Shown here: in pieces, positions 1 to 29,279 of the stretch
How positions within the stretch are numbered: the first letter of the stretch is position 1
Layout: each line of letters starts with the position of its first letter
Virus record (IMG/VR): IMGVR_UViG_3300045257_000080
Location: 1 to 29,657 of that record
Source: a virus
Direction: 5' to 3' (one strand)
Length of the DNA stretch: 29,657 bases
Position numbers and translations under genes: made by a program
The notes under the pieces: model-generated
Seen by the model: the letters and a program-made list of their open reading frames with translations, nothing else
The model's database searches: none
What the model was told of the DNA's origin: nothing

Positions 1-3000
1 ACATTCCACCGGTGGGCGAAGCTGCGGATCATGTCCGGATCGAACCCCGGTACCGTGTAGCGCGCGGTCAGGACCTTCGAGATTGCGCTGTCCGGCTGGC
101 TCTCCAGCCATGTATCGCGAATTGCCTGGATCGCGTCCTGCTTGCGATCGGCGAGCGCTACCTTATCGGCCGGAGACATTCCCGCATCTGGCGTGAAGCG
201 CGGATCAGTCTCGAGGCTCGAGATCGCCTTGGCGACAAACTGCGGCACACCAGCTGCGACACCGTAGTTATCTTCCTTGGTGCGCGGCCCGGACTTGATA
301 TCGGACAGTTCACCGTCTAGCCACCCTTGTGCGTGCAGGTCCTTCATCAGCGCCTCGAACCGATGCTGCTGATCGACCTTCTCGAAACGCGCCGCAAATT
401 TCGGCCGCGTGTTGTCGGTGCTGATCTGGACGTTCTTGAACCCGGCATCCACAAGCGCCTTGGCGACATGCGCCTGGGCGGCGGGGTCCACCGTGCCCGA
501 CGGCAGCTTGCGGATCGTCGCCGAGCCGAAATTGTCGCCGAAACGGCCTAGATGGAAATATGGAGCGCGTGCCATTCCAGCCAGAGCTTCGTGAGTTGCT
601 GCGATCTTCGCCTCGATCGGCGACAGATGCTGTGCCATTCCGCGCTGGTCTGCCGCCGTGCCGGCCGCCGCCTCGCCTCGCTTCTGCGCGACAAACGCCT
701 GCGATGCCTTGAGTTGGTCATTGAGCGCTCCCTGCCAGTGCGCGCGAACCTCCTCCGGAGTGGACAGCTCAGCGCGCGTCATGAAGGTGTCCATGGGGTT
801 GACCCCAGCCCCGGCAACACCGAGCGAGAATTCCGGGTCCGACGCGACCAGCGAGTGCATCTCGGACGCCATGCGGGCATAATTCATTGCCTCGTTCCAT
901 GCCCGGAACTCGTTGAAAACCTTGATCCCGGCCTTGTCGCCACGCGACAGGTCATTCTGCAGCTTCACCGCTTCACCGTGCAAACGCCGTAGGTCAGCGA
1001 TGTTGGCGTGATCCTGCAGGTGGGTATGATCCACGAACGCCTTGGACGGGTCGATCTGGAACTCAGTGGTCATTCGCATCAGCTGGCCCACCTTCTCGGC
1101 GAGCGCCTTGTTGCTATTCTGGAGCGCCTCGAAATTCTGATAAGCGGTATCACCCATCGACGCGAACCGTCCACGGATGGCGTCGTGCTGGCGCTTGGCC
1201 TCAGTGCGATCGAGCAGTCCCGGCATGCGCGCGCCGAACTCGCGATCGATGTGGTTCTGGCTGAACAGCCCGAGCGCCGCGCGCCGAGCTTTCACGCCCA
1301 GGTCGCGGATGTTGATGCCGTCCATGACCTTCGTCGCAAGCGCCGCAGCCTGCTTGGTTGCGTCATTGGCAGCTGAGACCGTCCGGTTCGCAGCACTCAC
1401 TCCGGCTTCGCTGGCGTTGGCTACCAGCCGCTGCCGGAGGCCGTAAGCCGGGTTGTCGCGCGCGAACACCGGCGCGAGGTCGCGCGCGCTCGTGCCCAGT
1501 ATCTGCTCGGAGACACGCAGCAGCTCGGTCAGCGCAGTGTCGTATTTCTGCCCCTGCAGCCCAAGCACATTCCGCACGAGCCCGACGAATTTGGAGAAAA
1601 CGCTCTCTTTCGGCTTGTACTCGATCGACTGCAGATACTTCTGCATCGTCGGGTTGGTCAGGCCCCAGGCGATAATCTCGTGTGGATCGGCGAAAGCGTT
1701 ATGCTCGCCCAACGCGTGGCCCAGCTCGAACTCGGTGTGCGTCAGCCGATCGCCATTGTCGAGGCGATCATTGACATGCCGAACGACCGCCTCGCCCAGA
1801 TCGCGCAGCGCCTTGACTGCCTTGCCCAGCGCTGTCTTGCCTTCAGGATCGGTGCGGTCTGCATAGTCGATCGCCTGCATCGTGACGGCGTGAATCATCT
1901 CGTGGGCAGCCAGCTGGTAATTCATACCGGCATCAGGACCCATGTCCGCGCTCTTGAGCCAGACCGTCGATTTCGCCGGGTTCTTGGTGACCTCGGTAAA
2001 GGCGCGCACATCCGGGTTGGAAAGCTCCACCGGCACGAGATCGCCCGGCTTGGCGATCTTGATATCGAATTCATGCCCACCGGCCGCCGTGACCTGCTTC
2101 ATCAGGCCCTGCACCTTTTCCATGATGGCGCGGCCGGCGGCGTTCGGCGCGTGATCGACCATGTGTTGGACAGTTTCGGAGAACGTCTTTCCCGTAACGA
2201 ACTGTTCGAACTGGGAATTGGCGCCACCCAGCAGTGCACCGCCGCGCAGGAACGAAGCTTTGCCCGCCTTGGAGGCTTGGATGATCTTCATCAACCGCTC
2301 GGCTTGGTCGATATGCCCGGCGTCGACCAGATCATGCAGCTTGGCCGCGCGCTGGTCGTTGATGAGACCTTGCTCGTGAGCGAAGTCGATCGTGTTGCGG
2401 ATGCCATACGCACGCACCGCACCTTCGGTCTGTGCACGCGTCTCGGTCTTGGTGCGGGTGTCACCGCGCGCGACATTCATTTCCTTGAAGATCGGCTGCC
2501 CACGGCTCGGGCGCGCGGGCGCCGCGGCCGGTTTCGCCTCGGGCTGGTTGAACAGCGTCTTGCCGCCCTGGACCTGCTGAAGCGCGGCAGCCAGCTCGGC
2601 ATCCGTCGTGCCGTTGCGTACCATGCGACGCAGGGCTGCTGCATCACTGTCGCTGACGGTCGACAGGTTTGTCGCGTCGAGCACGCGGTTCTGGGCCCGC
2701 TGGGTAATCTGGCCGGGCGTGAGCGGAGCAGACTTGACATCCTCGCGCGCAACAGCCTTGCCGGTCGTGCGGGTGTCCTGCCGCGCGCGGATCGCCTCGG
2801 TCTGCGCAAGCGTCTTGACGCCTGACTTCTCAACGAAATGTTGCGCCCAGACCTTGCCGGCCTCGTTGGCCGCCAACGCCTCGACAGTGGTATGCTGGCC
2901 CTGTGGCTGGCCAGTGACCTGCTCGCGCACGCCTTGCGTAAACGCGGCTTCGTGCGCCGGATCGGAGAAGCCCTGCTCACGCGCCGCCTGGGCGACATCG

Positions 3001-5171
3001 GCAACACCCTCGGGCGTACCGAGATATGCCTGCCGACCGGCCGGGGTGATATCCATGTGCTCATCGTTTGTGACGAGCCCCATTTTCTGCGCCAGTCGCT
3101 CAACCTGTGATGCCTCACCGTTGCGCGTGGTGGTGTCATCGGCCAGTGCACGGAAGACATTCGCCCGGGCCTGCTCCATGTTGACCGGCGTGCCGATCGC
3201 AGCCGCGCCGCGCTGGCGGCTGATCCCGGCGTCTTTCTTGAGCTGGTCCCACTGTGCGGGGAACGCCGCGTCCGGAGTTGCCGGCGTGAGGCTGACAGCC
3301 TCGGGAACCGCTGCTACAGGAGTGCCGGGCACTGCTTCTGTCGCCGCCGCTGCGGGCGTCGCTGAGGTGGTGCCCACCGGCGTCCCGACAGGCGCCTCAG
3401 GCGCCGTAGCCTCAGCCCGATCCGCTGCGGTGCGCTGCGCCTCGATCGCCTCGGCCTTGGGGGTGGGCTTCAGGTCCGCGTCGAGCAGCCCGATCCGCTG
3501 TGCCAGCTTCACGACGTTCGACTGGCTGTTCTGGTTGACCATGACCTCGTCATAGACCTTGGTGACCAGCTCCTGTGGGTTGGCCGCATCCAGCTTCTGA
3601 ACCCAGCCGCCGCGCAGCCCGGATTTAACGTCGTCGAGGCGCGTCTTGAAATCGCCGGTGAGCGGTACATCTCCACCAGCCTCTGCATTGCGTGCGGCGA
3701 TCTCCTCGGCAGCGTGCTGCTTCACAACCGGTGTGGCGTCCTTAGCCCGGAGCACCGTCTGCAGGTCCTCCATGCTCTCGCTGGTGAAGGTGCGCGGCGG
3801 CGTGCCCTCCACGGCGTTGGTGGCTGTCTGCTCCGAACTAGAACGACGATCTTTGACAGCATTGGCCAGCTGTGTTGGTTTGCCGTCAGCGTCAAGCAAC
3901 CCAACACGTTGCGCCGCAATAGTTGTAGTGGCCGATGTGTCACCATCGTCGAACACACGACCATACACCTTGTCCAACAAGTCCGCACGATCGGATGCCG
4001 TTAAATCCTGCACGAACTGGGTATTCATCAGTCCCTGCTTAAGATCGACAAGGCTGTCTTTAAACTCTCGCGGAGCATTTTGATCAACAATAATCTGGCG
4101 CAGTGCATCTGGACCCGCCGCGCTCACGCCGCGAGCATCAGTAACAACATCCGCAATTGGCATCGCATCTAGCGCACTCTGTGCTCCAGGATTGACCGCA
4201 CTGTTACCTCGCGGATCGACGACAATGTCCGCACGCTGCTGCACCGTCGGCTTCGTCGGGTCCGGCGCCGGCAGCGCGAGTTGGCTTGGCGGACTCGGCA
4301 GACCCAGTACCTGATCGATATGCGCCTTCATATCGTCCACGGTAACCTGCTCCGGGGGCTTGGCAATCGCCGCGCTCCGACGGAACCCGCCGGCAGCGCC
4401 CATGACCCCACCGACGGCAAACGCGGTCGCGGCGGCGTTGACATATTCGGCTGCTGCATCCGCACCGGATACCGGCAGGCCCGCTGAGTAGCGTTCACCG
4501 AGCTGCTGCCCAGCCTCTGCCACGGCTTCAGTTGCCCCCGCCTTGGCGATCGACTTGGCTGTGCGGGTCAGGAAGTTGCCGGTCTGGGTGGCGGCAAAAT
4601 CACCAATAACGTGTCCGGCGCCCGGCAGGAACCGCTCAACCAGCGCATCAGACGCTGCCTGGACCGGCGCCGCCAGCAACGATCGCTCAGCACCGGCCGA
4701 TGACAGGCCGCCATTCTCCTGTACAGCACGGTCGACGTTCGAGCCAACGAACATGGGCGTGCCCACAGCCACGGCGCCCGCGAGCGCACCGCCTGGGCCT
4801 CCAGCCAGTCCACCTCCAACACCGCCTGCAAGAATGCCCACGGTCTGGGGAAGCGATGTAGCGAGGTTCTCGCCAAGGAAGCGGCCGATCCCGACCTTGC
4901 CGCTGGTGAGGTCACTGATCGACGCCGGGGGCGCCATCGCCGCCTGTTGGTCAGCCCAGGCGAGGCCGGTCTTGTAGAATTGGTCGTCTTCAGGCGTGAG
5001 GTTGCCGCCCAGTTTCTCGAGTGCGTAAGGCAGCCCATAGCGGACCTGCCCATAGGTGCTGCGCGTGGCTGCACCCAGAACCGCGCCGAGCCCCGGACGG
5101 GGCTGCGCCGGCCCCTGGCTCAGGGCATTAATGACATCGTCATCGACCTGTACGTTGCCGATCATCGGCAT
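1..5171 (-). CDS. Giant polyvalent virion/ejection protein with zincin domain (C-terminus beyond window)
   Basis: The frame is open from an ATG at 5171 to the window edge, giving at least 1,723 residues without a stop. Residues about 105-135 are Gly/Ala-rich and membrane-like, as in phage ejection proteins. Residues about 390-710 hold degenerate repeats built around a GLLDAD-like core. HEMIH at residues 1090-1094 is an HExxH zinc-peptidase signature; HEIIAW with Glu1165, followed by LTNP, is a likely third ligand. Near residue 1560 a YFHLGRFGD segment resembles the YxPLxRFG motifs common in very large phage polyvalent proteins. It is the last gene of the late array, 3 bases after its neighbour, where N4-like and Bcep22-like phages encode a giant ejected protein. 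A role in the virion with cleavage of host or virion proteins is inferred. I saw no RNA polymerase motifs in this part. Confidence 0.8.
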   Translation of the reverse strand, partial: MPMIGNVQVDDDVINALSQGPAQPRPGLGAVLGAATRSTYGQVRYGLPYALEKLGGNLTPEDDQFYKTGLAWADQQAAMAPPASISDLTSGKVGIGRFLGENLATSLPQTVGILAGGVGGGLAGGPGGALAGAVAVGTPMFVGSNVDRAVQENGGLSSAGAERSLLAAPVQAASDALVERFLPGAGHVIGDFAATQTGNFLTRTAKSIAKAGATEAVAEAGQQLGERYSAGLPVSGADAAAEYVNAAATAFAVGGVMGAAGGFRRSAAIAKPPEQVTVDDMKAHIDQVLGLPSPPSQLALPAPDPTKPTVQQRADIVVDPRGNSAVNPGAQSALDAMPIADVVTDARGVSAAGPDALRQIIVDQNAPREFKDSLVDLKQGLMNTQFVQDLTASDRADLLDKVYGRVFDDGDTSATTTIAAQRVGLLDADGKPTQLANAVKDRRSSSEQTATNAVEGTPPRTFTSESMEDLQTVLRAKDATPVVKQHAAEEIAARNAEAGGDVPLTGDFKTRLDDVKSGLRGGWVQKLDAANPQELVTKVYDEVMVNQNSQSNVVKLAQRIGLLDADLKPTPKAEAIEAQRTAADRAEATAPEAPVGTPVGTTSATPAAAATEAVPGTPVAAVPEAVSLTPATPDAAFPAQWDQLKKDAGISRQRGAAAIGTPVNMEQARANVFRALADDTTTRNGEASQVERLAQKMGLVTNDEHMDITPAGRQAYLGTPEGVADVAQAAREQGFSDPAHEAAFTQGVREQVTGQPQGQHTTVEALAANEAGKVWAQHFVEKSGVKTLAQTEAIRARQDTRTTGKAVAREDVKSAPLTPGQITQRAQNRVLDATNLSTVSDSDAAALRRMVRNGTTDAELAAALQQVQGGKTLFNQPEAKPAAAPARPSRGQPIFKEMNVARGDTRTKTETRAQTEGAVRAYGIRNTIDFAHEQGLINDQRAAKLHDLVDAGHIDQAERLMKIIQASKAGKASFLRGGALLGGANSQFEQFVTGKTFSETVQHMVDHAPNAAGRAIMEKVQGLMKQVTAAGGHEFDIKIAKPGDLVPVELSNPDVRAFTEVTKNPAKSTVWLKSADMGPDAGMNYQLAAHEMIHAVTMQAIDYADRTDPEGKTALGKAVKALRDLGEAVVRHVNDRLDNGDRLTHTEFELGHALGEHNAFADPHEIIAWGLTNPTMQKYLQSIEYKPKESVFSKFVGLVRNVLGLQGQKYDTALTELLRVSEQILGTSARDLAPVFARDNPAYGLRQRLVANASEAGVSAANRTVSAANDATKQAAALATKVMDGINIRDLGVKARRAALGLFSQNHIDREFGARMPGLLDRTEAKRQHDAIRGRFASMGDTAYQNFEALQNSNKALAEKVGQLMRMTTEFQIDPSKAFVDHTHLQDHANIADLRRLHGEAVKLQNDLSRGDKAGIKVFNEFRAWNEAMNYARMASEMHSLVASDPEFSLGVAGAGVNPMDTFMTRAELSTPEEVRAHWQGALNDQLKASQAFVAQKRGEAAAGTAADQRGMAQHLSPIEAKIAATHEALAGMARAPYFHLGRFGDNFGSATIRKLPSGTVDPAAQAHVAKALVDAGFKNVQISTDNTRPKFAARFEKVDQQHRFEALMKDLHAQGWLDGELSDIKSGPRTKEDNYGVAAGVPQFVAKAISSLETDPRFTPDAGMSPADKVALADRKQDAIQAIRDTWLESQPDSAISKVLTARYTVPGFDPDMIRSFAHRWN

Positions 5172-5174
5172 GGG

Positions 5175-5915
5175 TTACTGCCCCCCGGCCTGCTGGTCCG
5201 CGAGCATCGCCTGCATCGACAGTCCCTGCGGATTGACACCGATCAGCGTCGCAAGGTTCTGTCGATATTTGTCGGTCGCCTTCTGCACCGCCGCGGTATA
5301 TTCCGGGCTGTCCGCACCGAGCTTTTTCGCTGCTGCCAGATCGGCTGCGAACTCGGCATCCGTGACCGCGCCGGCCGTGCCGGTGATCTTGTCTCTGTTG
5401 GTCTGCTGCACCTTGGTGAGCGCCGGCACCGCCTGGGCGATGCCCGACAGTGCCGCGAGATCGTGATTGGTCACCCCGGATTTGATCCGGCTGGCAATGA
5501 AGTTGTGAATTTCGTCTGCGGCATTGGCTGGTACCGCGGCCTCGCGCCCCTGTGCCATGGCGTTCGCAACCGGGTTGGTGGCGACTGCCACCGGCACCGG
5601 CTTGGCCGCCACAGGTGTTGGGAGCGCATCCGTCGTCGAGCCCGAGGAGCCGAGCGCACCACCAAGAAAGCTGCCGATCCCGCGCGCGACCCCCAGCGCC
5701 GGCCGGCCGACGACGTCAGTTACACCGGCCGCCAACCCTTCCGGCACCCCGACTAGCGACGCACCGGCCGCGCGCGCATAGTCGCCAGAGGCCACCGCGC
5801 GGTTGATCGCGCCAGTCGTGTTGGTGCGCACAGCGTTGATTGTGGGAAACGCGTCGCGGAAATACTGGCTGAGCTGATCAACCAGTCCCGGACTATCAGT
5901 GGTCTTGCTCGGCAT
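5175..5915 (-). CDS. Putative internal virion (ejection) protein, Ala/Gly-rich
   Basis: This 246-residue protein is rich in Ala, Gly, Val and Pro. Residues about 50-95 contain Gly/Ala-rich hydrophobic stretches (GVPEGLAAGVTDVVG, GIGSFLGGALG) that could associate with membrane, followed by a helical second half with many Ala, Lys and Gln. It starts 2 bases after the stop of the adaptor gene and ends 3 bases before the giant protein start, so the three genes are almost certainly co-transcribed. The position and composition fit a small ejection protein next to a giant one, as in T7-like and N4-like virions. This is inference from context, because no family motif was recognised. Confidence 0.6.
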   Translation of the reverse strand: MPSKTTDSPGLVDQLSQYFRDAFPTINAVRTNTTGAINRAVASGDYARAAGASLVGVPEGLAAGVTDVVGRPALGVARGIGSFLGGALGSSGSTTDALPTPVAAKPVPVAVATNPVANAMAQGREAAVPANAADEIHNFIASRIKSGVTNHDLAALSGIAQAVPALTKVQQTNRDKITGTAGAVTDAEFAADLAAAKKLGADSPEYTAAVQKATDKYRQNLATLIGVNPQGLSMQAMLADQQAGGQ

Positions 5916-5917
5916 CT

Positions 5918-6691
5918 CTATCTTTCCCAGGTAAAGCCGCCGCGGCCGAAACCCCAGCCCATCGGCGCGAACATCTTGCGCATAGCGATTTTCCGGGCTT
6001 TCGTCACGCTGACATCGAAACGAGCTGCAAACTCATCGGCACGCTTGGGCGCACCCGCGTCATCGTCAACGATCCGCAACGCCAGATATGCGGCCCAGTC
6101 GAGCATCTCAATGTGATGATCCTCAGGCAGTTCTGGTACGGCGCTGAGCGCAGTCGGGACCAGAGGCTGGAGCGGCTTTCGCACGACGCGCAGGCGCAGC
6201 GCCGCACCGGCCGTCTCCATGGCTGCGCTCGGCGCCGGCCAGACACGCATCGTCACCTGCGAGAAGCTGCTGCTGTCCAGATCGTTGAGCGCCTCATCAG
6301 TCGAAAAGGCGAGGGTCTCGCCAGGCGCCAATGTATCGAAGCTCTGCGGGTCCACCCACGACTCGCTGGGTGTGCAGTAGGCAGTAAACAGGCTGTGGCC
6401 CACCCGGTTGAGCGCGGCAGTGCGCCCGACCGTCTGGGCGCTCATGACCGAGATGATGGCAGGATGCAGATCGTAGATCGTCTGCCCCGCGACCAGGGGG
6501 ACCAGCGTTGCTTCGTTGGTGGTGCCGTCGCGCAGGATGAACGACTCGACAGCGAACTTGCGTTGCGCTTCGTTGATGAAGGTGCAGAGCGTCGCATCGG
6601 TCCACAAATAATCGGACGAGCCAGCAACCCGGCTCGTCCGATCATTTAGAACAGACTCCCGGAGCAGCGTGAGCAGTTCTCCGAGTGTCAT
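5918..6691 (-). CDS. Head-tail adaptor (connector) protein
   Basis: The 257-residue product begins MTLGELLTLLRES and has the layout of phage adaptor/gp4-like connector proteins. A short N-terminal helix is followed by a WTDATLCTFINEAQRKFA segment (residues about 30-47), a central beta-rich part with VRVWPAP-like strands, and a C-terminal helical part with DHHIEMLDWAAYLALR (about 190-205). This helix, together with the late KARKIAMRK helix, is typical of proteins that dock on the portal ring. An AGGGGGT/AGGA ribosome site lies just upstream of the ATG. The location between capsid genes and ejection proteins fits a connector. A strong 12-bp inverted repeat lies within codons 17-27. Confidence 0.65.
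   Translation of the reverse strand: MTLGELLTLLRESVLNDRTSRVAGSSDYLWTDATLCTFINEAQRKFAVESFILRDGTTNEATLVPLVAGQTIYDLHPAIISVMSAQTVGRTAALNRVGHSLFTAYCTPSESWVDPQSFDTLAPGETLAFSTDEALNDLDSSSFSQVTMRVWPAPSAAMETAGAALRLRVVRKPLQPLVPTALSAVPELPEDHHIEMLDWAAYLALRIVDDDAGAPKRADEFAARFDVSVTKARKIAMRKMFAPMGWGFGRGGFTWER
6611..6642 (-). repeat. Perfect 12-bp inverted repeat inside the adaptor gene
   Basis: ATCGGACGAGCC (6611-6622) and its exact reverse complement (6631-6642) flank an 8-base loop, about 50 bases into the coding sequence. Read leftward the stem is followed by ATTATTTG, so it looks like a weak terminator or attenuator. The codons (NDRTSRVAGSSD) are not otherwise unusual. Confidence 0.7.
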
Positions 6692-8216: not shown

Positions 8217-9254
8217 TTATGCCGTGGCGCCGACTTCGAGGCGGACCATGAAGGCCTCCTGAAGGATGACCGTCGCGGTCCAGAGCTTCCAGCCCACCGT
8301 GCCGCGCTGGCCCAGCGGATCGCCGGCCGCCGGCTTCGGATTGACGACCATCGGGGTCATCGAGTCCTTGCCCTTCAGCGGCACGATCCCGAAGGCGTCG
8401 CGCGCAAAGTAGAGGACCGGATAGACGTCGATGTTGACACCCGCGTTCGACCGCAGCGTCGGCGCCGTGGCAACGACCACACCGGCTGCCTCGAAGGGCT
8501 TGGCGACCGTGGTGGCGATATAGCGCACCTGCTCGACCGAGCCGATCTCGCCTTCCCAGGGCGTGGTGTGCGGACCGTAATCCGCGGTCGGCTTGAAGCC
8601 GGTCATGTCGCGGACATCCGTCTCCATGTCCGGGTGCACGACAGCGACATAGGCGGCTTCGACCGACTTCGTGTTGTAGTCCGGCGTCGAGGCAACCACC
8701 GCGGTGATCTTCTTCGCGTTCTGGCGCGACAGGGCCGTGGTGACGCGACGCTGGTCGGTCAGGCTGATCTTGTTCGCGACCAGCGCGCGCGAGGCAACGC
8801 CGGTTCCGTAAAACACATTCACGCCGGCCTTCAGCACGTTGTAGCGCAGGGTCTCGACGGTCTCGGCGGCGTTCTCGCCCAGCACATCCGTGGCAACACC
8901 AAGGATGTCGTCGGGATGCGTGTCATTGACGACATCGGTGATCGTGATGAAGTCGCCATACTGCGCCAGCTGGACGGTGTAGTCCTGGTTGGCGAGCGAG
9001 CGGCCATCGGGCGTGACGCCCTCGACCAGCGGGGTCGTCGCGAGCGGCGTGTAGAAGTTGCCCGAGCCGTTACCTGCCGCGCCGGTCGCACCGGACAGGA
9101 AGTAACGACGGAACTTCGCCGTCTGCGTCGAATTGGTGGGCAGCGCATAGGTCTGGCCGAACTTCTCGAACACGAGGAGCGGCAGCGCGCGCTTGAGCAT
9201 GCGAACAACGGCCCAGGCCGCTACTGCAGGAGAGATGTCGCCGTATGAAACCAT
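8217..9254 (-). CDS. Major capsid protein, N4-gp56 family
   Basis: This 345-residue protein matches the recognisable pattern of N4-gp56-type capsid proteins. An N-terminal helix with LKRALPLLVFEKFGQ is followed by LPTNSTQTAKFRRY (about 40-52), PLVEGVTPDGRSL (about 76-88), QLAQYGDFITITDVV (about 95-109) and ENAAETVETLRYNVLKAG (about 127-144). A C-terminal half with VRYIATTVAKPFEAAG completes the HK97-type fold. It forms the icosahedral shell. The ATG follows an AAGGGGGC ribosome site. The upstream gene encodes the scaffold candidate, and a GC hairpin lies just downstream. Length is somewhat shorter than the roughly 400 residues of N4 gp56. Confidence 0.9.
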   Translation of the reverse strand: MVSYGDISPAVAAWAVVRMLKRALPLLVFEKFGQTYALPTNSTQTAKFRRYFLSGATGAAGNGSGNFYTPLATTPLVEGVTPDGRSLANQDYTVQLAQYGDFITITDVVNDTHPDDILGVATDVLGENAAETVETLRYNVLKAGVNVFYGTGVASRALVANKISLTDQRRVTTALSRQNAKKITAVVASTPDYNTKSVEAAYVAVVHPDMETDVRDMTGFKPTADYGPHTTPWEGEIGSVEQVRYIATTVAKPFEAAGVVVATAPTLRSNAGVNIDVYPVLYFARDAFGIVPLKGKDSMTPMVVNPKPAAGDPLGQRGTVGWKLWTATVILQEAFMVRLEVGATA

Positions 9255-12747: not shown

Positions 12748-14253
12748 CTACTTCATGTGATACGAACTACCGCCAAATGAGCGGGGCGGGACGAACCCGC
12801 GGCCCTGCCCACCGCCTGCCGTATATCGCTCACCTTTGAGCACTTGTCGATGGAAGTAGCGCGCGAGGTATCCGAACGCGTCGCCGGGGTGGCTGAAGAT
12901 GTTCTTCTCCGGCTTCGCGCCGGCCGCGGTTTCCTTGATATTTTCCTTCGCGTCGAGCGCATAGCGCCAGCCGCCCTTGAGTGCGCGCACCAGCGTCGGA
13001 CAGGCTCGCTCGTCGATGATTAGCCTGGGCATGCCGAACGCCATCCCGGTGCAGAAATAGTCGATCGCGTCGAGCCGGAGCGGAAGCCGGTTGTTGGTCT
13101 CGATCGAGACCGGATAGGACCGCTTGATCGTCGCCAGGATCGTGTTCTCGTCATTCGCGTTGCGGTTGTTAGCCGCCGGATCGGGCGCGATGATAAAGCG
13201 GCCGGGCTGGAGATCGGCGAACCCACGGTTAAGGAACGGCCGCAGCCGCTCATTGATGAAGCGCGCGGTGCCGACACCGGACGTGATCAGCTCACCCAGC
13301 ACATGCAGCCGCCCCTCCAAATCCTCCTGGCCGAAAATCATCGCCGCACCGCCGATCCCCGGATCGTAACCGCCGATCAGGTCAAGGTTCGGATCGAAAC
13401 GCAGCGGCACCTTGGAGAGATGCGCGCGCCAGTTGAACGACGCGACAACCGGCTTGCCGGACACCGAGAAACCCCATTCGGCCTCGATGAACTGCTTGAT
13501 CCAAGCCTCGGTCTTGTTCTTCGCGGCGGCGGTATAATAGTCGCGCCCGCCGGGCAGGTTCTCGACATTCTCGGCAAAGGCCGAATAGCCGCTGGGCTGC
13601 AGGAAATAGCGCGCGCTGCGGGTGTCGAACACGATCCGGTGGTGCAGGCTGACGCCCTCACCGGGCTGGATGACACTGGCACCCGCATGCAGATAGTCGT
13701 GCCACCAATTATCCTCGGTCGACGGGTTGGACGACCCCCACATGCCCCAGTTGGTGGCGCCGCCCATGACCTTGGACGGATAGCGCCCGCAGCGCGCCGA
13801 CAGCGCGTCGATGATCGCCTGGGGGATTTCCACGAACTCGTCGACGATCGCGAAGGTGACCTCGAGCGATAGGACGCGCGCGATATCCTGCGGGCTGTCG
13901 AGTGGCCGGAACAGCACCTCGCACTCGACATCGCCATATTTCAGCACGAAATTCTTGTCGGTCTGGTACCATTTACCGGCCTGACCGTCCTTGAACCATG
14001 TGAACCAGCTATTGAGCGTGGTATCGCGCAGCTGGGTCGAGGTGTTGCGCACGATCACCGCCCGGCTGCGGCGGATACCGTCGGGCCCCTTCGCCTGGAG
14101 GCCCGCCATATAGACGAGCTTCATGAAAATGCCGGTGGTCTTGCCGGACCCGACCGGCCCCACAATCCAGTCGTAGAACAGCTCGCCGGGGAGGTGATCC
14201 TTGATGAACCGGCTGATCGTCGCAGGCGGGGTGTAATTGATCGTCGATGCCAC
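12748..14253 (-). CDS. terL: Terminase large subunit (packaging ATPase/nuclease)
   Basis: The 501-residue protein carries a Walker A motif GPVGSGKT (residues 32-39), an arginine-rich adenine-binding neighbourhood, a Walker B motif FAIVDE (Asp138-Glu139) and a C-terminal RNase H-like nuclease domain beginning around GGYDPG (about residue 300). PDPAANNRNANDEN and a late DAIDYFC follow as candidate metal ligands. It cuts concatemers and pumps DNA through the portal encoded just downstream. The start is a GTG that overlaps the TAG of the SGNH gene by one base (TAGTG), so translation is probably coupled. It has the size and motifs of a complete, functional enzyme. Confidence 0.92.
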   Translation of the reverse strand: MASTINYTPPATISRFIKDHLPGELFYDWIVGPVGSGKTTGIFMKLVYMAGLQAKGPDGIRRSRAVIVRNTSTQLRDTTLNSWFTWFKDGQAGKWYQTDKNFVLKYGDVECEVLFRPLDSPQDIARVLSLEVTFAIVDEFVEIPQAIIDALSARCGRYPSKVMGGATNWGMWGSSNPSTEDNWWHDYLHAGASVIQPGEGVSLHHRIVFDTRSARYFLQPSGYSAFAENVENLPGGRDYYTAAAKNKTEAWIKQFIEAEWGFSVSGKPVVASFNWRAHLSKVPLRFDPNLDLIGGYDPGIGGAAMIFGQEDLEGRLHVLGELITSGVGTARFINERLRPFLNRGFADLQPGRFIIAPDPAANNRNANDENTILATIKRSYPVSIETNNRLPLRLDAIDYFCTGMAFGMPRLIIDERACPTLVRALKGGWRYALDAKENIKETAAGAKPEKNIFSHPGDAFGYLARYFHRQVLKGERYTAGGGQGRGFVPPRSFGGSSYHMK

Positions 14254-15449
14254 TAAACCACCTGTGACAGCAACGTCGCCATGATCCCCGCTTCCATGTC
14301 CAGCAGCCCGCGCGCGTTGAGATGGATCAGATCATCCCACAGTCCGCCGGTGGCCGCCGAAAACGGCTCCTGCCCACCCATGTCGAGAAGGCGCTGGTTC
14401 AGATCATAGAGAACCGATGTCGCACCGAGCCCCGAACGGAACAGGTCCAGATAGGTCTGCTGCGTCGCATAGGCCGTCTGCGCCGCGGCACAGGGCGGCC
14501 ACGCCACGCCGATGATGCTCGCCGATCCCAGTGTGGTGAGCGCGCCCAGAAGCGTCGCAAGATTGGTCGAATAGGTCGCCGTGGCCACGCCGTTCATGGC
14601 GTCGTTCGACCCGGCGATCAGGATTTGCGCCTGCGCCTGCAGGACAGTGTTTTCCCAGAAGCGGTTGGGGATGTTGTTGGCGACCATGTTCGCCGTGGTG
14701 TAGCCAGAGGAGCCCATCGTCCGGATGAACAGCGTCGGCTTCGCGGCGGTGTACTCCTCATGCCCCCAGAGCTGGATGTTGCCGGACGCGTTGGTCACCT
14801 CGATCGTGTGCTGGCCGTAGGGGACGGTGATGAGCGTCGACTGCAGCCGCGCAGCCCCACTCTGCGAAATCGTCTGACTGGCAACCGACCCGCCACTGGT
14901 GGGCGTGGTGAAGTTGGTCGCACCGCCGTCGACAGTGATCGTCATACTGCCGCCGCCGCCGTTGCCGGCTGTATCCTGGAACCACAGCAGATTGTCCGTG
15001 TCGAAGCTGGTCGGCGTGATCGCACTCGGGTTGTAGATCATCTTGTCGCCGACAACGGTCGAGCGGAATGTCTTCCCGCCCAGCAGGTCCTGCCAGACAC
15101 CCCATGCCGTACCGGAGGCGATGGTGAATGTAGTCCGCGGATCATAGGTCGTTGCCGCCGCCGTGGTGCCGGGGTTGCCGAACGGATGGTCGGAAACGGC
15201 GATACCGAGTCTAGCGCGAAAATCCGCGGCGAGCCGCGCGCCAAGACTGTTGGCATAGGTCTTCCCACCCGAACAGCGCGCATGGCTGTCGCCGACGATG
15301 TTGAGGTACCCGGTCAGCTCGACGGCGGTCAGCAGCCGGTTGAGCTTGATATTCCACTTGCCGAGATTGGCCGCCGTTGCGTTGCGGACATAAGCGCGCG
15401 GGGTCTGAAGGCGCGACAGCGGCGCGGGCGGGATAGGCGAAAGCAACAT
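14253..15449 (-). CDS. SGNH/GDSL-family hydrolase, putative virion esterase
   Basis: The 398-residue protein contains the SGNH blocks in order: GDSHA with nucleophile Ser55, a block II-like HPFGNPG glycine, AGSND with Asn282, and DLIHLNARG with Asp373 and His376 near the C-terminus. Residues about 150-245 form a Thr/Ser/Gly-rich beta insertion that could bind carbohydrate. There is no signal peptide. SGNH enzymes on phage tail fibres and spikes deacetylate capsule or O-antigen, so a receptor-modifying virion enzyme is likely. It starts 3 bases after the putative virion protein gene at 15453-16079 and runs straight into the terminase. Confidence 0.8.
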   Translation of the reverse strand: MLLSPIPPAPLSRLQTPRAYVRNATAANLGKWNIKLNRLLTAVELTGYLNIVGDSHARCSGGKTYANSLGARLAADFRARLGIAVSDHPFGNPGTTAAATTYDPRTTFTIASGTAWGVWQDLLGGKTFRSTVVGDKMIYNPSAITPTSFDTDNLLWFQDTAGNGGGGSMTITVDGGATNFTTPTSGGSVASQTISQSGAARLQSTLITVPYGQHTIEVTNASGNIQLWGHEEYTAAKPTLFIRTMGSSGYTTANMVANNIPNRFWENTVLQAQAQILIAGSNDAMNGVATATYSTNLATLLGALTTLGSASIIGVAWPPCAAAQTAYATQQTYLDLFRSGLGATSVLYDLNQRLLDMGGQEPFSAATGGLWDDLIHLNARGLLDMEAGIMATLLSQVV

Positions 15450-26988: not shown

Positions 26989-28023
26989 ATGCAGGTCATC
27001 AACATCCCGACGATGAAGTCCATGATCCACCATCTCGGCGTCGGCAAGCGCCGGCCGCTCTACTTCTGGGGCCCGTCGGGTGTCGGCAAGAGCGAGGGCA
27101 TCCAGCAGGCCTGCGCCGAGCACGAGGGCGTGATGTGCGACATTCGCGTCAGCCAGTATGAGGGCATCGACTTTCGCGGCATCCCCGATGTGCAGGCCGG
27201 TTCCACCGTGTGGAACATGCCGGCGACGCTGCCCTTCAAGGGCAACGCCAAGTTCGAGATGTGCGACCCGGACAAGCCGATCTTCATGTTCCTCGACGAG
27301 ATCAACCAGGGCGATCCGTCGGTCACGTCGGTCTGCTACCAGCTCATCCAGGATCGCCGCATCGGCGAGCACGAACTGCTCGACAATGTCGTGATCGTCG
27401 CCGCCGGCAACCGCGACAGCGATCGCGGCGCCACCAACCGCTGGGCCTATCCGCTCGGCAACCGCGGCACGCACGCCGAGCTGGTCGCCGACGTCAAGGC
27501 ATGGTCGGCATGGGCTGCCACGACCAGTGTGCCGGCGGCACTGATCGGCTTCCTGAACTTCCGCGCGGAGCTGATCCACACCTTCGACAGCGCCAAGCCC
27601 ACCAAGGTGTTCGCGACCCCGCGCAGCTGGGGCTTCGTCGCCGAGGACATGGCCGATCCGAGCCTGCCCGAGGACGTGCGCCTCGCCAGCATGTCGGGCT
27701 CGGTGGGCGAAGGCCCGGCGGTCGAGCTGAGCGGCTTCCTCAAGATCATGGCGTCGCTCAAGCCGATCGAGGAGATCATCAAGGACCCGATGGGCGTTCC
27801 GATCAGCGAGGAGCTGGACGTGCAGTGGGCGCTCGCCACCCATGTCGCCGGTAACATGCTGAAGGACAACGCCGATCCGCTGCAGAAATTCCTGGGGCGC
27901 ATGGAGCCCGAGATGGTGGTGATGGCGTGGACGCTGGCGATCAACCGCGATCCGGACCTGACCGACACCAACGCGTTCCTGTTCGACTATTCGCCCAAGT
28001 ATCGGGCGCTGTTCCAGAACTGA
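26989..28023 (+). CDS. MoxR-type AAA+ ATPase (N4 gp24-like)
   Basis: The 344-residue ATPase has Walker A GPSGVGKS (28-35), Walker B FMFLDE (Asp103-Glu104), and sensor 1 AAGNRDSDRG with Asn141. The spacing and the short C-terminal lid are MoxR/AAA_5-like. It is followed by the metallopeptidase/VWA gene. MoxR-VWA pairs are chaperone-like remodelling machines in bacteria (for example RavA-ViaA, CoxD-CoxE), and N4-like phages carry an equivalent pair (gp24-gp25) of unknown role. An AAAGGA-type ribosome site lies 10 bases upstream. Probably remodels a phage or host protein complex early in infection; the substrate is unknown. Confidence 0.85.
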   Translation: MQVINIPTMKSMIHHLGVGKRRPLYFWGPSGVGKSEGIQQACAEHEGVMCDIRVSQYEGIDFRGIPDVQAGSTVWNMPATLPFKGNAKFEMCDPDKPIFMFLDEINQGDPSVTSVCYQLIQDRRIGEHELLDNVVIVAAGNRDSDRGATNRWAYPLGNRGTHAELVADVKAWSAWAATTSVPAALIGFLNFRAELIHTFDSAKPTKVFATPRSWGFVAEDMADPSLPEDVRLASMSGSVGEGPAVELSGFLKIMASLKPIEEIIKDPMGVPISEELDVQWALATHVAGNMLKDNADPLQKFLGRMEPEMVVMAWTLAINRDPDLTDTNAFLFDYSPKYRALFQN

Positions 28024-28027
28024 GAGA

Positions 28028-28044
28028 CCCCTGCAGGGCAGGGG
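28028..28044 (+). other. Hairpin after the AAA+ gene
   Basis: CCCCTGC-AGG-GCAGGGG lies 5 bases after the AAA+ stop, without a T-run. It probably marks an mRNA end or processing site; the following 28045-28130 leader carries palindrome copy 7. Confidence 0.4.
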
Positions 28045-28090
28045 GTGGTGCGCACCAGGGCGCAAGGTCGGAGCCCGCCACCCCCGAAAC

Positions 28091-28107
28091 TGTCGGATAA
28101 TCCGACG
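28091..28107 (+). repeat. 17-base palindrome, copy 7 (leader of VWA gene)
   Basis: TGTCGGATAATCCGACG; the last base would give a terminal U-G pair. CCGAAAC precedes it and CAAAGGA and ATG 28131 follow. No TTGACATAAG promoter lies upstream, so this copy is inside the AAA+/VWA operon. Confidence 0.85.
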
Positions 28108-28130
28108 TTTAGAAATCAAAGGACCCGGCC

Positions 28131-29279
28131 ATGAACGTCCAGACCAAGAACACCGCCGATCCGAAATATAAGCTAAGCAAAGCCAAAGCAAGATTGCTGA
28201 TGGACCACCCATTTTTTGCAACGCTGTTGCTGCGAACCGAGGTGCTGCTTTCGGACACAGTGCCCACCGCCGCCACTGATGGCGAGCGCATGTATTTCAA
28301 CCCGGACTTCCTCGACCAGCTGTCGATCGACGACACCATGTTCGTGCTCTGCCACGAGGTGGGGCACGACAGTCTGCTGCACTCGCTGCGGATGGGGATG
28401 CGCAACCACGAGATATGGAACCAAGCCTGCGACCACGCCATCAACCTGATGCTGATCAACCAGGGTATGAAGATGCCGGCCAAGGTGCCCGGGCTGGCCG
28501 ATGACAAATACAAGGGCATGTCGGCCGATCGCATCTATGACGATCTGCGGCGCAACCCGCCCCCAAAGGGTGGTGGCGGCGCGGGCAAGCCCGGCGGCAG
28601 CCCCGGCAACACGCTGGGTGGTGACGTGCTGCCCAGCAAGACTGGCGGCGATCCGGCTAAACAGGCCGCGGCTGAGACGCGCGCCAAGCAGAAGGTGGCG
28701 GCAGCCGCGAACATGGCGCGCATGGCAGGCAAGCTGTATGGCGATCTCGAGCGGATGGTCAGCGAATGCCTCGAGACCAAGGTGGCATGGACCGATGTGC
28801 TGCGCGAGTACATGCTCAAGATCGTGAAGTCCCGCGAGAGCTGGCAGCGGCGCAACCGCCGGTTCAAGGATTTCTATTTGCCCACCCGGCACAGCCGCCA
28901 GCTTGGCCCGATCATCTTCATCCCTGACACGTCGGGCTCGATGTGGGGAGACGACATGGAGAAAATTTGCTCCGAGATCGCCCACTGCACCTCGCAGTGC
29001 GCGCCCGAGAATATTCGGGTGATCTGGGCTGATAGCAAGGTGCAGGGCGAGCAGGTGTTCGACCCGAACGAGTTCGAGTTCGGCAAGCTCGTGCCGGTGG
29101 GCGGCGGCGGGACCGACATGCGCGTGCCGCTCACCTATGCCGAGCAGTATGATCCGCAGGTCGTGATCCTGATGACGGACTGCGAGACGCCCTGGCCAGA
29201 CGCGGAGCCGCCATATCCGGTGATCGTGATCAGCACGACGAGCAAGGTCGCGCCGATCGGCACCACGATCAACATATGA
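28131..29279 (+). CDS. Zincin-like plus VWA-domain protein (N4 gp25-like)
   Basis: The 382-residue protein combines two domains. Residues about 1-130 form a putative metallopeptidase-like region with HEVGH (75-79) and a later CDHAINLML segment, as in DUF2201-type proteins. A Gly/Pro-rich linker (about 145-180) follows. The C-terminal part is a VWA domain with MIDAS residues: DTSGS (266-270), a GGGTDMR threonine (about 328) and MTD (about 347-349). It is the expected partner of the upstream AAA+ ATPase. In such pairs the VWA protein binds the ATPase and substrate. Whether the HEVGH site is catalytic is unproven. Confidence 0.85.
   Translation: MNVQTKNTADPKYKLSKAKARLLMDHPFFATLLLRTEVLLSDTVPTAATDGERMYFNPDFLDQLSIDDTMFVLCHEVGHDSLLHSLRMGMRNHEIWNQACDHAINLMLINQGMKMPAKVPGLADDKYKGMSADRIYDDLRRNPPPKGGGGAGKPGGSPGNTLGGDVLPSKTGGDPAKQAAAETRAKQKVAAAANMARMAGKLYGDLERMVSECLETKVAWTDVLREYMLKIVKSRESWQRRNRRFKDFYLPTRHSRQLGPIIFIPDTSGSMWGDDMEKICSEIAHCTSQCAPENIRVIWADSKVQGEQVFDPNEFEFGKLVPVGGGGTDMRVPLTYAEQYDPQVVILMTDCETPWPDAEPPYPVIVISTTSKVAPIGTTINI

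What the first reader, a model, noticed from the sequence alone, without database searches (positions are those of the whole stretch)
1..5171. Giant late protein with a zinc-peptidase motif (HEMIH ... E)
The open-ended protein carries HEMIH at 1090-1094 and Glu1165 in HEIIAW, 71 residues later, followed by LTNP. This looks like a zincin domain of the kind found in phage polyvalent proteins. It is placed as an ejected virion protein, so a peptidase delivered with the DNA is possible. In N4 the giant protein at this place is an RNA polymerase, but no such motifs were seen in this part, so the phage may have swapped the payload.
Basis: partly seen in the sequence, partly recalled or inferred. Interest (0 to 1): 0.7.

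Follow-up and report, generated by a model that had tools for sequence, protein, structure and literature searches.

The report
Zincin domain in phage ejection protein
A giant protein that this phage probably injects with its DNA carries a conserved protein-cutting (zincin) domain that phage N4's injected RNA polymerase also carries, so it is a clear but fairly ordinary new member of a known group, lacking the polymerase.

Summary
A 1,723-aa open-ended minus-strand protein (window 3-5171) has HEMIH at 1090-1094 and Glu1165 in HEIIAW. In 57 aligned relatives (18-50% identical to the window) both histidines, both glutamates and A1095 are invariant. AlphaFold gives a confident zincin fold (pLDDT 88) whose top structural matches are the C1 domain of N4 virion RNA polymerase (vRNAP), anthrax lethal factor domain IV and the PPEP peptidases.

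The 'payload swap' reading is reversed. N4's vRNAP carries the same zincin just after its polymerase domain (Iyer 2017; cryo-EM, Bellis 2025), and so does phiKMV gp37. What the window protein lacks is the polymerase. Complete relatives are 2,246-2,360 aa, so the missing end is about 600 aa, a C-terminal 'tail-700' (PLxRFG) domain in relatives, with no room for a polymerase of about 1,100 aa.

Ejection is supported by ejected or internal virion homologues, gene order, and striking cysteine avoidance (0 in 1,723 aa; 64 of 77 relatives have none).

Verdict: a new member of a known kind, an RNAP-less polyvalent ejection protein with a probably active zincin. Substrate and activity are unknown for the whole family.

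The parts
3..5171 (-). Giant ejection-type protein, 1,723 aa, C-terminus cut off by the record's end; complete relatives are 2,246-2,360 aa
   Evidence: 48% identical to L010 protein (2,246 aa) over aa 1-1722; lengths of L010, L011, L014, L030 proteins
1437..2219 (-). Zincin (metallopeptidase-like) domain, about aa 985-1245
   Evidence: Alignment A3; AlphaFold model of aa 975-1250, pLDDT 87.7, pTM 0.87; VIA-align matches to N4 C1, lethal factor domain IV and PPEPs
1890..1904 (-). HEMIH, aa 1090-1094: two zinc-ligand His and the catalytic Glu1091 (predicted)
   Evidence: Invariant in 57 sequences; kept in 19 of 19 loci not selected for it
1665..1682 (-). HEIIAW, aa 1164-1169, third zinc ligand Glu1165 (predicted)
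   Evidence: Glu1165 invariant in 57 sequences; on the next conserved helix in the model
903..1289 (-). LPD39-like region, aa 1295-1423
   Evidence: PF18858 E 4e-5, 23.8 bits, below the cut-off of 27; over the cut-off in L011 and in phage Rollin
4182..5171 (-). Gly/Ala-rich N-terminal region, aa 1-330, possibly membrane-interacting (inferred)
   Evidence: Sequence; 57-60% identity of the first ~370 aa to relatives; no strongly hydrophobic segment by a simple scan and no detectable homology to the N4 N-terminus
2247..4184 (-). Middle region, aa 330-975, where N4 has its polymerase; linkers with about three short winged-helix-like units
   Evidence: Low-confidence model (pLDDT 64, pTM 0.37); sub-threshold DUF5343 match at aa 415-449; no vRNAP Pfam hit
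5175..5915 (-). Upstream small cysteine-free protein (246 aa), candidate second ejection protein
   Evidence: No cysteine; related to the ORF just before the giant gene in L010; no family match
5918..6691 (-). SU10-type head-tail adaptor
   Evidence: PF24175 E 4.8e-18
8217..9254 (-). Major capsid protein of the N4 gp56 type
   Evidence: phrog_1357 E 6e-64; 43% identity to phage Rollin
10542..12737 (-). Portal protein (PHROG name: head-tail adaptor)
   Evidence: phrog_332 E 4.9e-17; same place as the annotated portals of vB_Pun_Y3 and StenR_269
12748..14253 (-). Terminase large subunit
   Evidence: phrog_2 E 8.4e-26

Best explanation
The gene encodes an RNAP-less polyvalent ejection (internal virion) protein of a podophage with an N4-type head, about 2,300 aa when complete. 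It is packaged in the capsid and passes through the tail and periplasm in an unfolded or beads-on-a-string state, which would explain why it has no cysteines (inferred from homologues and composition). Its zincin domain binds zinc through H1090, H1094 and E1165 and uses E1091 as general base (predicted from fold and invariance). Most likely it acts as a peptidase after delivery, at the inner membrane or in the cytoplasm, on a host protein, on the ejectosome or on its own chain, rather than before packaging (inferred, the weakest step). The domain is the same one that follows the polymerase in N4 vRNAP. Here the polymerase is absent, and early transcription would rely on the host enzyme (inferred).
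For: Invariant HExxHA...E in 57 relatives and HExxH kept in 19 of 19 loci not selected for it. Confident zincin model with N4 C1, lethal factor domain IV and PPEPs as best structural matches. Profile matches to N4 gp50 (hhalign probability 94.6, E 7e-8; PDB 9pnr E 1.9e-7, 9sfn E 2.2e-68, 8vb2 E 9.8e-7). Homologues are ejected or internal virion proteins: N4 gp50, phiM1 gp48, phiKMV gp37. Zero cysteines in 1,723 aa, in 64 of 77 relatives, and in N4, phiKMV and Rollin counterparts. No RNAP models in the window protein or in the 50.7- and 64.8-kb relatives. N4 vRNAP is packaged uncut (PMC5512222).
Against: No peptidase activity or metal has been shown for any member in the papers read. Foldseek alone found no significant PDB match, and the VIA-align Z values (up to 6.9) are moderate. 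Ejection is inferred from homologues that share only the zincin: N-terminal and post-zincin parts show no detectable homology to N4 or phiKMV. The window protein lacks its C-terminus, and the relative records may be incomplete.
Confidence: 0.7

Rival explanations
1. The zincin is a self-processing peptidase: it cuts the giant polypeptide into domains, in the capsid during maturation or just after entry, to free the payload parts.
For: Iyer et al. propose autoproteolysis for such domains, with phage P1 DdrB processed before packaging as a clue (PMC5512222). The protein has long low-confidence linkers between small units.
Against: N4 vRNAP is packaged unprocessed. phiKMV-type gp37 is deposited as a 1,337-residue chain, though deposited length does not prove that it is uncut in the virion.
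Confidence: 0.25
2. The domain is a structural zinc or packaging module without catalysis; in N4 the region is needed for encapsidation.
For: The N4 region that includes the domain is required for encapsidation (PMC5512222). In N4 the CTD contacts and represses the polymerase (PMC12633501). No activity is reported.
Against: The catalytic Glu is retained in 19 of 19 loci not selected for it; a structural zinc site would not need it.
Confidence: 0.2
3. One reading: the phage swapped N4's RNA polymerase payload for a peptidase.
For: No polymerase is detectable in the window protein.
Against: N4 gp50 has the homologous peptidase domain too, so nothing was swapped in. Nearly all fetched relatives with this zincin show no N4-type polymerase. 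No tree was built, so the direction of gain or loss was not tested.
Confidence: 0.03
4. A polymerase exists in the missing C-terminal part or elsewhere in the genome.
For: The record is a fragment, with the C-terminus and most of the genome unseen.
Against: Four relatives with the complete gene have about 600 aa more, ending in the tail-700 domain. PF00940 and PF21894 are absent from the 50.7- and 64.8-kb relative records. In N4 the polymerase lies before the zincin, and that part is complete here.
Confidence: 0.07

Closest known systems
N4 virion RNA polymerase gp50, C1 domain (aa 2124-2375; PDB 9PNR and 9PNT)
   Same: Homologous zincin with HExxHAxT and ExxAWGL; giant, cysteine-free, ejected; encoded in the late minus-strand block near head genes
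   Different: No polymerase domain in the window protein; no detectable homology to the N4 N-terminus or C2
phiKMV gp37 / phiM1 gp48 (T7 gp16-position internal virion proteins; PDB 9SFN, 8VB2)
   Same: The same zincin (25-27% identity over aa 992-1225), no cysteine in phiKMV gp37, ejectosome protein
   Different: 1,263-1,337 aa; different remaining domains
Zincin-like MPTase of phage polyvalent proteins (Iyer et al. 2017, PMC5512222)
   Same: HEXXH plus second-helix Glu, giant multidomain phage protein, LPD39-type partner
   Different: Assignment to one of their 12 MPTase clades could not be tested
Pseudomonas phage Rollin giant protein and the PLxRFG 'tail-700' (NF032893) / DarB-like C-terminal family
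   Same: Rollin: same place after capsid and adaptor, LPD39, HExxH, DarB-like C-terminus. L010, L011, L014 and L030 carry NF032893 at the C-terminus
   Different: Rollin's HEMGH domain is not alignable to the window zincin by BLAST; the window itself ends before the tail-700 domain
Lethal factor domain IV and PPEP peptidases (MEROPS M34; family number from memory)
   Same: Fold and HExxH arrangement by structural alignment, Z 5.3-6.8
   Different: No sequence-level relation found; about 9-18% identity in structural alignments; no shared biology implied

Membership tests
Zincin-like MPTase of polyvalent proteins | HEXXH motif on a helix | tested here: met
Zincin-like MPTase of polyvalent proteins | Conserved Glu on a second C-terminal helix | tested here: met
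   Glu1165 invariant in 57 sequences, on helix 189-198 of the model
Zincin-like MPTase of polyvalent proteins | Core of three strands flanked by helices | tested here: met
   Predicted strands 60-66, 83-89 and 92-99 before the HExxH helix; structural matches to known zincins; prediction only
Zincin-like MPTase of polyvalent proteins | Fusion to other polyvalent-protein domains (LPDs) | tested here: inconclusive
   LPD39 below cut-off in the window, above it in L011 and Rollin
Zincin-like MPTase of polyvalent proteins | Peptidase activity | not testable with these tools
   No assay here; none found in the papers read
N4-type virion RNA polymerase | T7-type RNAP domain with vRNAP Pfam modules | tested here: not met
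   PF21894, PF21769, PF21867 and PF21624 hit N4 but not the window protein; N4 polymerase region by phmmer: no hit
N4-type virion RNA polymerase | C1 zincin domain | tested here: met
N4-type virion RNA polymerase | C2 domain and N-terminal domain | tested here: inconclusive
   No homology detected by hhalign, which cannot exclude a distant relation
Podophage ejection (internal virion) proteins | Present in the virion and ejected | not testable with these tools
   Inferred from homologues and cysteine avoidance; no proteomics
Podophage ejection (internal virion) proteins | Giant gene next to head genes, cysteine-free | tested here: met
M34 (lethal factor / PPEP) peptidases | M34 fold and active site | tested here: inconclusive
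   Z 5.3-6.8 over 135-161 residues; no sequence match
PLxRFG 'tail-700' / DarB-like C-terminal domain | NF032893 match at the C-terminus | not testable with these tools
   The window ends before the region; present in relatives L010, L011, L014 and L030

The most novel reading that the evidence does not exclude
One zincin family (HExxHAxT...ExxAWGLT) is a widespread injected peptidase of podophages with and without a virion polymerase (N4-like, phiKMV-like and this group), acting on a common host or ejectosome target on entry. The N4 polymerase would then be an add-on to a more common peptidase-bearing ejection protein.
Probability: 0.3. Interest if true: 0.65.

Novelty: new member of a known kind. 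Interest (0 to 1): 0.35.

Why it matters
The C-terminal domain of N4 vRNAP, zincin included, has no known role in early infection. A family that keeps the zincin but lacks the polymerase suggests that the domain has a job of its own and points to smaller proteins (phiKMV gp37, 1,337 aa, structure solved) in which that job can be tested. It also warns against naming such giants 'virion RNA polymerase' by size, helicity and lack of cysteine, as was done for StenR_269.

Tried and rejected
A whole-protein scan of viral contigs found nothing; the zincin domain alone and then an alignment found relatives. Foldseek alone gave no PDB match below E 0.001; VIA-align was needed. phmmer of the full window protein against PDB sequences gave nothing useful, while the alignment profile gave 9sfn, the N4 entries and 8vb2. 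Homology of the N-terminus or of the post-zincin region to N4 or phiKMV: looked for with hhalign, not detected. A polymerase hidden in the middle region: rejected on the family searches; the model there is low-confidence helices and linkers, so its fold remains open. A polymerase in the missing C-terminus: judged unlikely because four complete relatives end in the tail-700 domain. Payload swap: rejected. No tree was built, so no direction of gain or loss of the polymerase is claimed. BLAST self-comparison of the middle region showed no internal repeat; the three similar units are seen only in the predicted secondary structure.

Full report
Observation. The minus-strand ORF 3..5171 encodes 1,723 aa from an ATG and runs off the end of the record; the record is a 29,657-base virus contig identical to the window. 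By composition only 0.036 HExxH would be expected.

Is the motif real? An alignment-based scan found 171 related stretches among the viral contigs, of which 80 were kept, and 5 in bacterial genomes. In a 57-sequence alignment (18-50% identity to the window) H1090, E1091, H1094, A1095 and E1165 are invariant, T1097 98% and Q1177 96%, against a mean column conservation of 41%. Because that alignment was filtered on HExxHA, the fair test is the set of 19 loci without the exact HExxH search pattern, which were found through the second-helix pattern; all 19 keep HExxH 53-94 residues upstream. Some of these are near-duplicates; about 15 are distinct.

Fold. The domain (aa 975-1250) was predicted with pLDDT 87.7 and pTM 0.87, with helix, strands, HExxH helix and Glu helix in zincin order. 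Foldseek alone gave nothing significant. VIA-align ranked the N4 vRNAP structures (9pnt Z 6.9 over 182 residues; 9pnr 6.6), anthrax lethal factor domain IV (6.8), Certhrax (6.8) and PPEP-1 and PPEP-3 (5.3-6.1) on top, then neprilysin (4.2), with unrelated folds at 3.9 and below. These Z values are moderate, but the list is coherent, and sequence profiles independently connect the domain to N4 gp50 (hhalign probability 94.6, E 7e-8; 9pnr E 1.9e-7; phrog_2206 E 2e-13).

What N4 has. N4 gp50 carries HELVH at 2228 followed by NEFMAWGL, right after its polymerase domain. This was described by Iyer et al. 2017 (PMC5512222), and the structure by Bellis et al. 2025, who note the HExxH motif in C1 (2124-2375) and leave the CTD's role in early transcription open (PMC12633501). 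So the peptidase was not swapped in; the polymerase is what is absent here. The same domain is in phiKMV gp37 and phiNV3 gp38 and in phiM1 gp48, an ejectosome protein whose structure paper does not mention a protease.

No polymerase. The four vRNAP Pfam models hit N4 but not the window protein. The N4 polymerase region as a phmmer query hits only N4 and one Alteromonas genome locus (L095) among the relatives; several loci are truncated, so this is a lower bound. Close relatives with the full gene are 2,246, 2,254, 2,333 and 2,360 aa. In L010 and L011 about 600 aa lie beyond the point where the window ends, and the C-terminal part matches the PLxRFG tail-700 domain NF032893 in all four. PF00940 and PF21894 were not found in the 50.7- and 64.8-kb relatives, while PF00940 rang in both, and PF21894 in one, of the two bacterial genomes that carry 3,456- and 3,591-aa zincin proteins. 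The virus records may be incomplete.

Is it ejected? The gene follows capsid, adaptor and a small cysteine-free protein, as in L010. It has no cysteine in 1,723 aa, where 14 would be expected from the other window proteins; 64 of 77 distinct relatives have none, while neighbouring ORFs have 0.73%. Lack of cysteine is a published trait of N4 vRNAPs, explained by injection through the tail (PMC3915230). The one zincin relative with six cysteines, L012, has a different architecture. Ejection is therefore well supported but inferred.

Rest of the protein. The middle region, where N4 has its polymerase, was modelled with low confidence (mean pLDDT 64) as linkers with about three short winged-helix-like units; one overlaps a sub-threshold DUF5343 match. 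LPD39 follows the zincin, below cut-off in the window but above it in L011 and Rollin. The post-zincin region of the window group is related to several other giant groups but not detectably to N4 C2 or phiKMV.

Mechanism. Shown: conserved motif, predicted fold, homology, absence of RNAP models, cysteine avoidance. Inferred: zinc binding, peptidase activity, delivery with the DNA. The catalytic Glu is kept even where it was not selected for, which favours an enzyme over a structural site. N4 vRNAP is packaged uncut, which argues against cleavage before packaging and leaves action after delivery, on host or ejectosome proteins or on itself, as the best guess.

Novelty. The domain, its presence in N4 vRNAP and its polymerase-free use in giant phage proteins were published in 2017. 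The window protein is a new member. The points not met with in the papers read are the link of the phiKMV and phiM1 internal proteins to this zincin and the family-wide cysteine count; the literature search was limited to the open papers held, and the supplements of the 2017 paper were not read.

Noticed in passing
L007:22776-29588 (Stenotrophomonas phage StenR_269): Annotated 'putative virion-associated RNA polymerase' on size, helicity and lack of cysteine (PMC10747016), but no RNAP Pfam model matches it, and it carries two HExxH motifs.
   Followed up: partly
L005:15452-22006 (Pseudomonas phage Rollin): The syntenic giant protein is annotated as an OppA-like oligopeptide-binding protein, but it has HEMGH, LPD39 and a DarB-like C-terminus, and no cysteine.
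   Followed up: partly
window 2247-4184: Middle region of the giant protein: three similar helix-helix-hairpin-helix units in a low-confidence model, resembling winged helices; possible DNA-binding part.
   Followed up: partly
window 14253-15449: GDSL-like lipase/acylhydrolase domain (PF13472, E 5.8e-8) in a protein next to the terminase, perhaps a tail or spike esterase.
   Followed up: no
window 26989-29279: ATPase (phrog_1297) followed by a protein of the HNH endonuclease / VWA-like family phrog_1314, also found in many N4-like phages.
   Followed up: no
L012:7715-12415: The same zincin (31% identity) in a different polyvalent protein with a DUF7178 match and six cysteines, unlike the ejection-type relatives.
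   Followed up: partly
L094 and L095 (Vreelandella venusta and Alteromonas genome contigs): Zincin proteins of 3,456 and 3,591 aa in bacterial genomes, L095 with a recognisable N4-type polymerase region: possible N4-like prophages.
   Followed up: no
window 5175-5915: Cysteine-free Gly/Ala-rich 246-aa protein just upstream of the giant gene, no family match, C-terminal part conserved in L010: candidate small ejection protein.
   Followed up: partly
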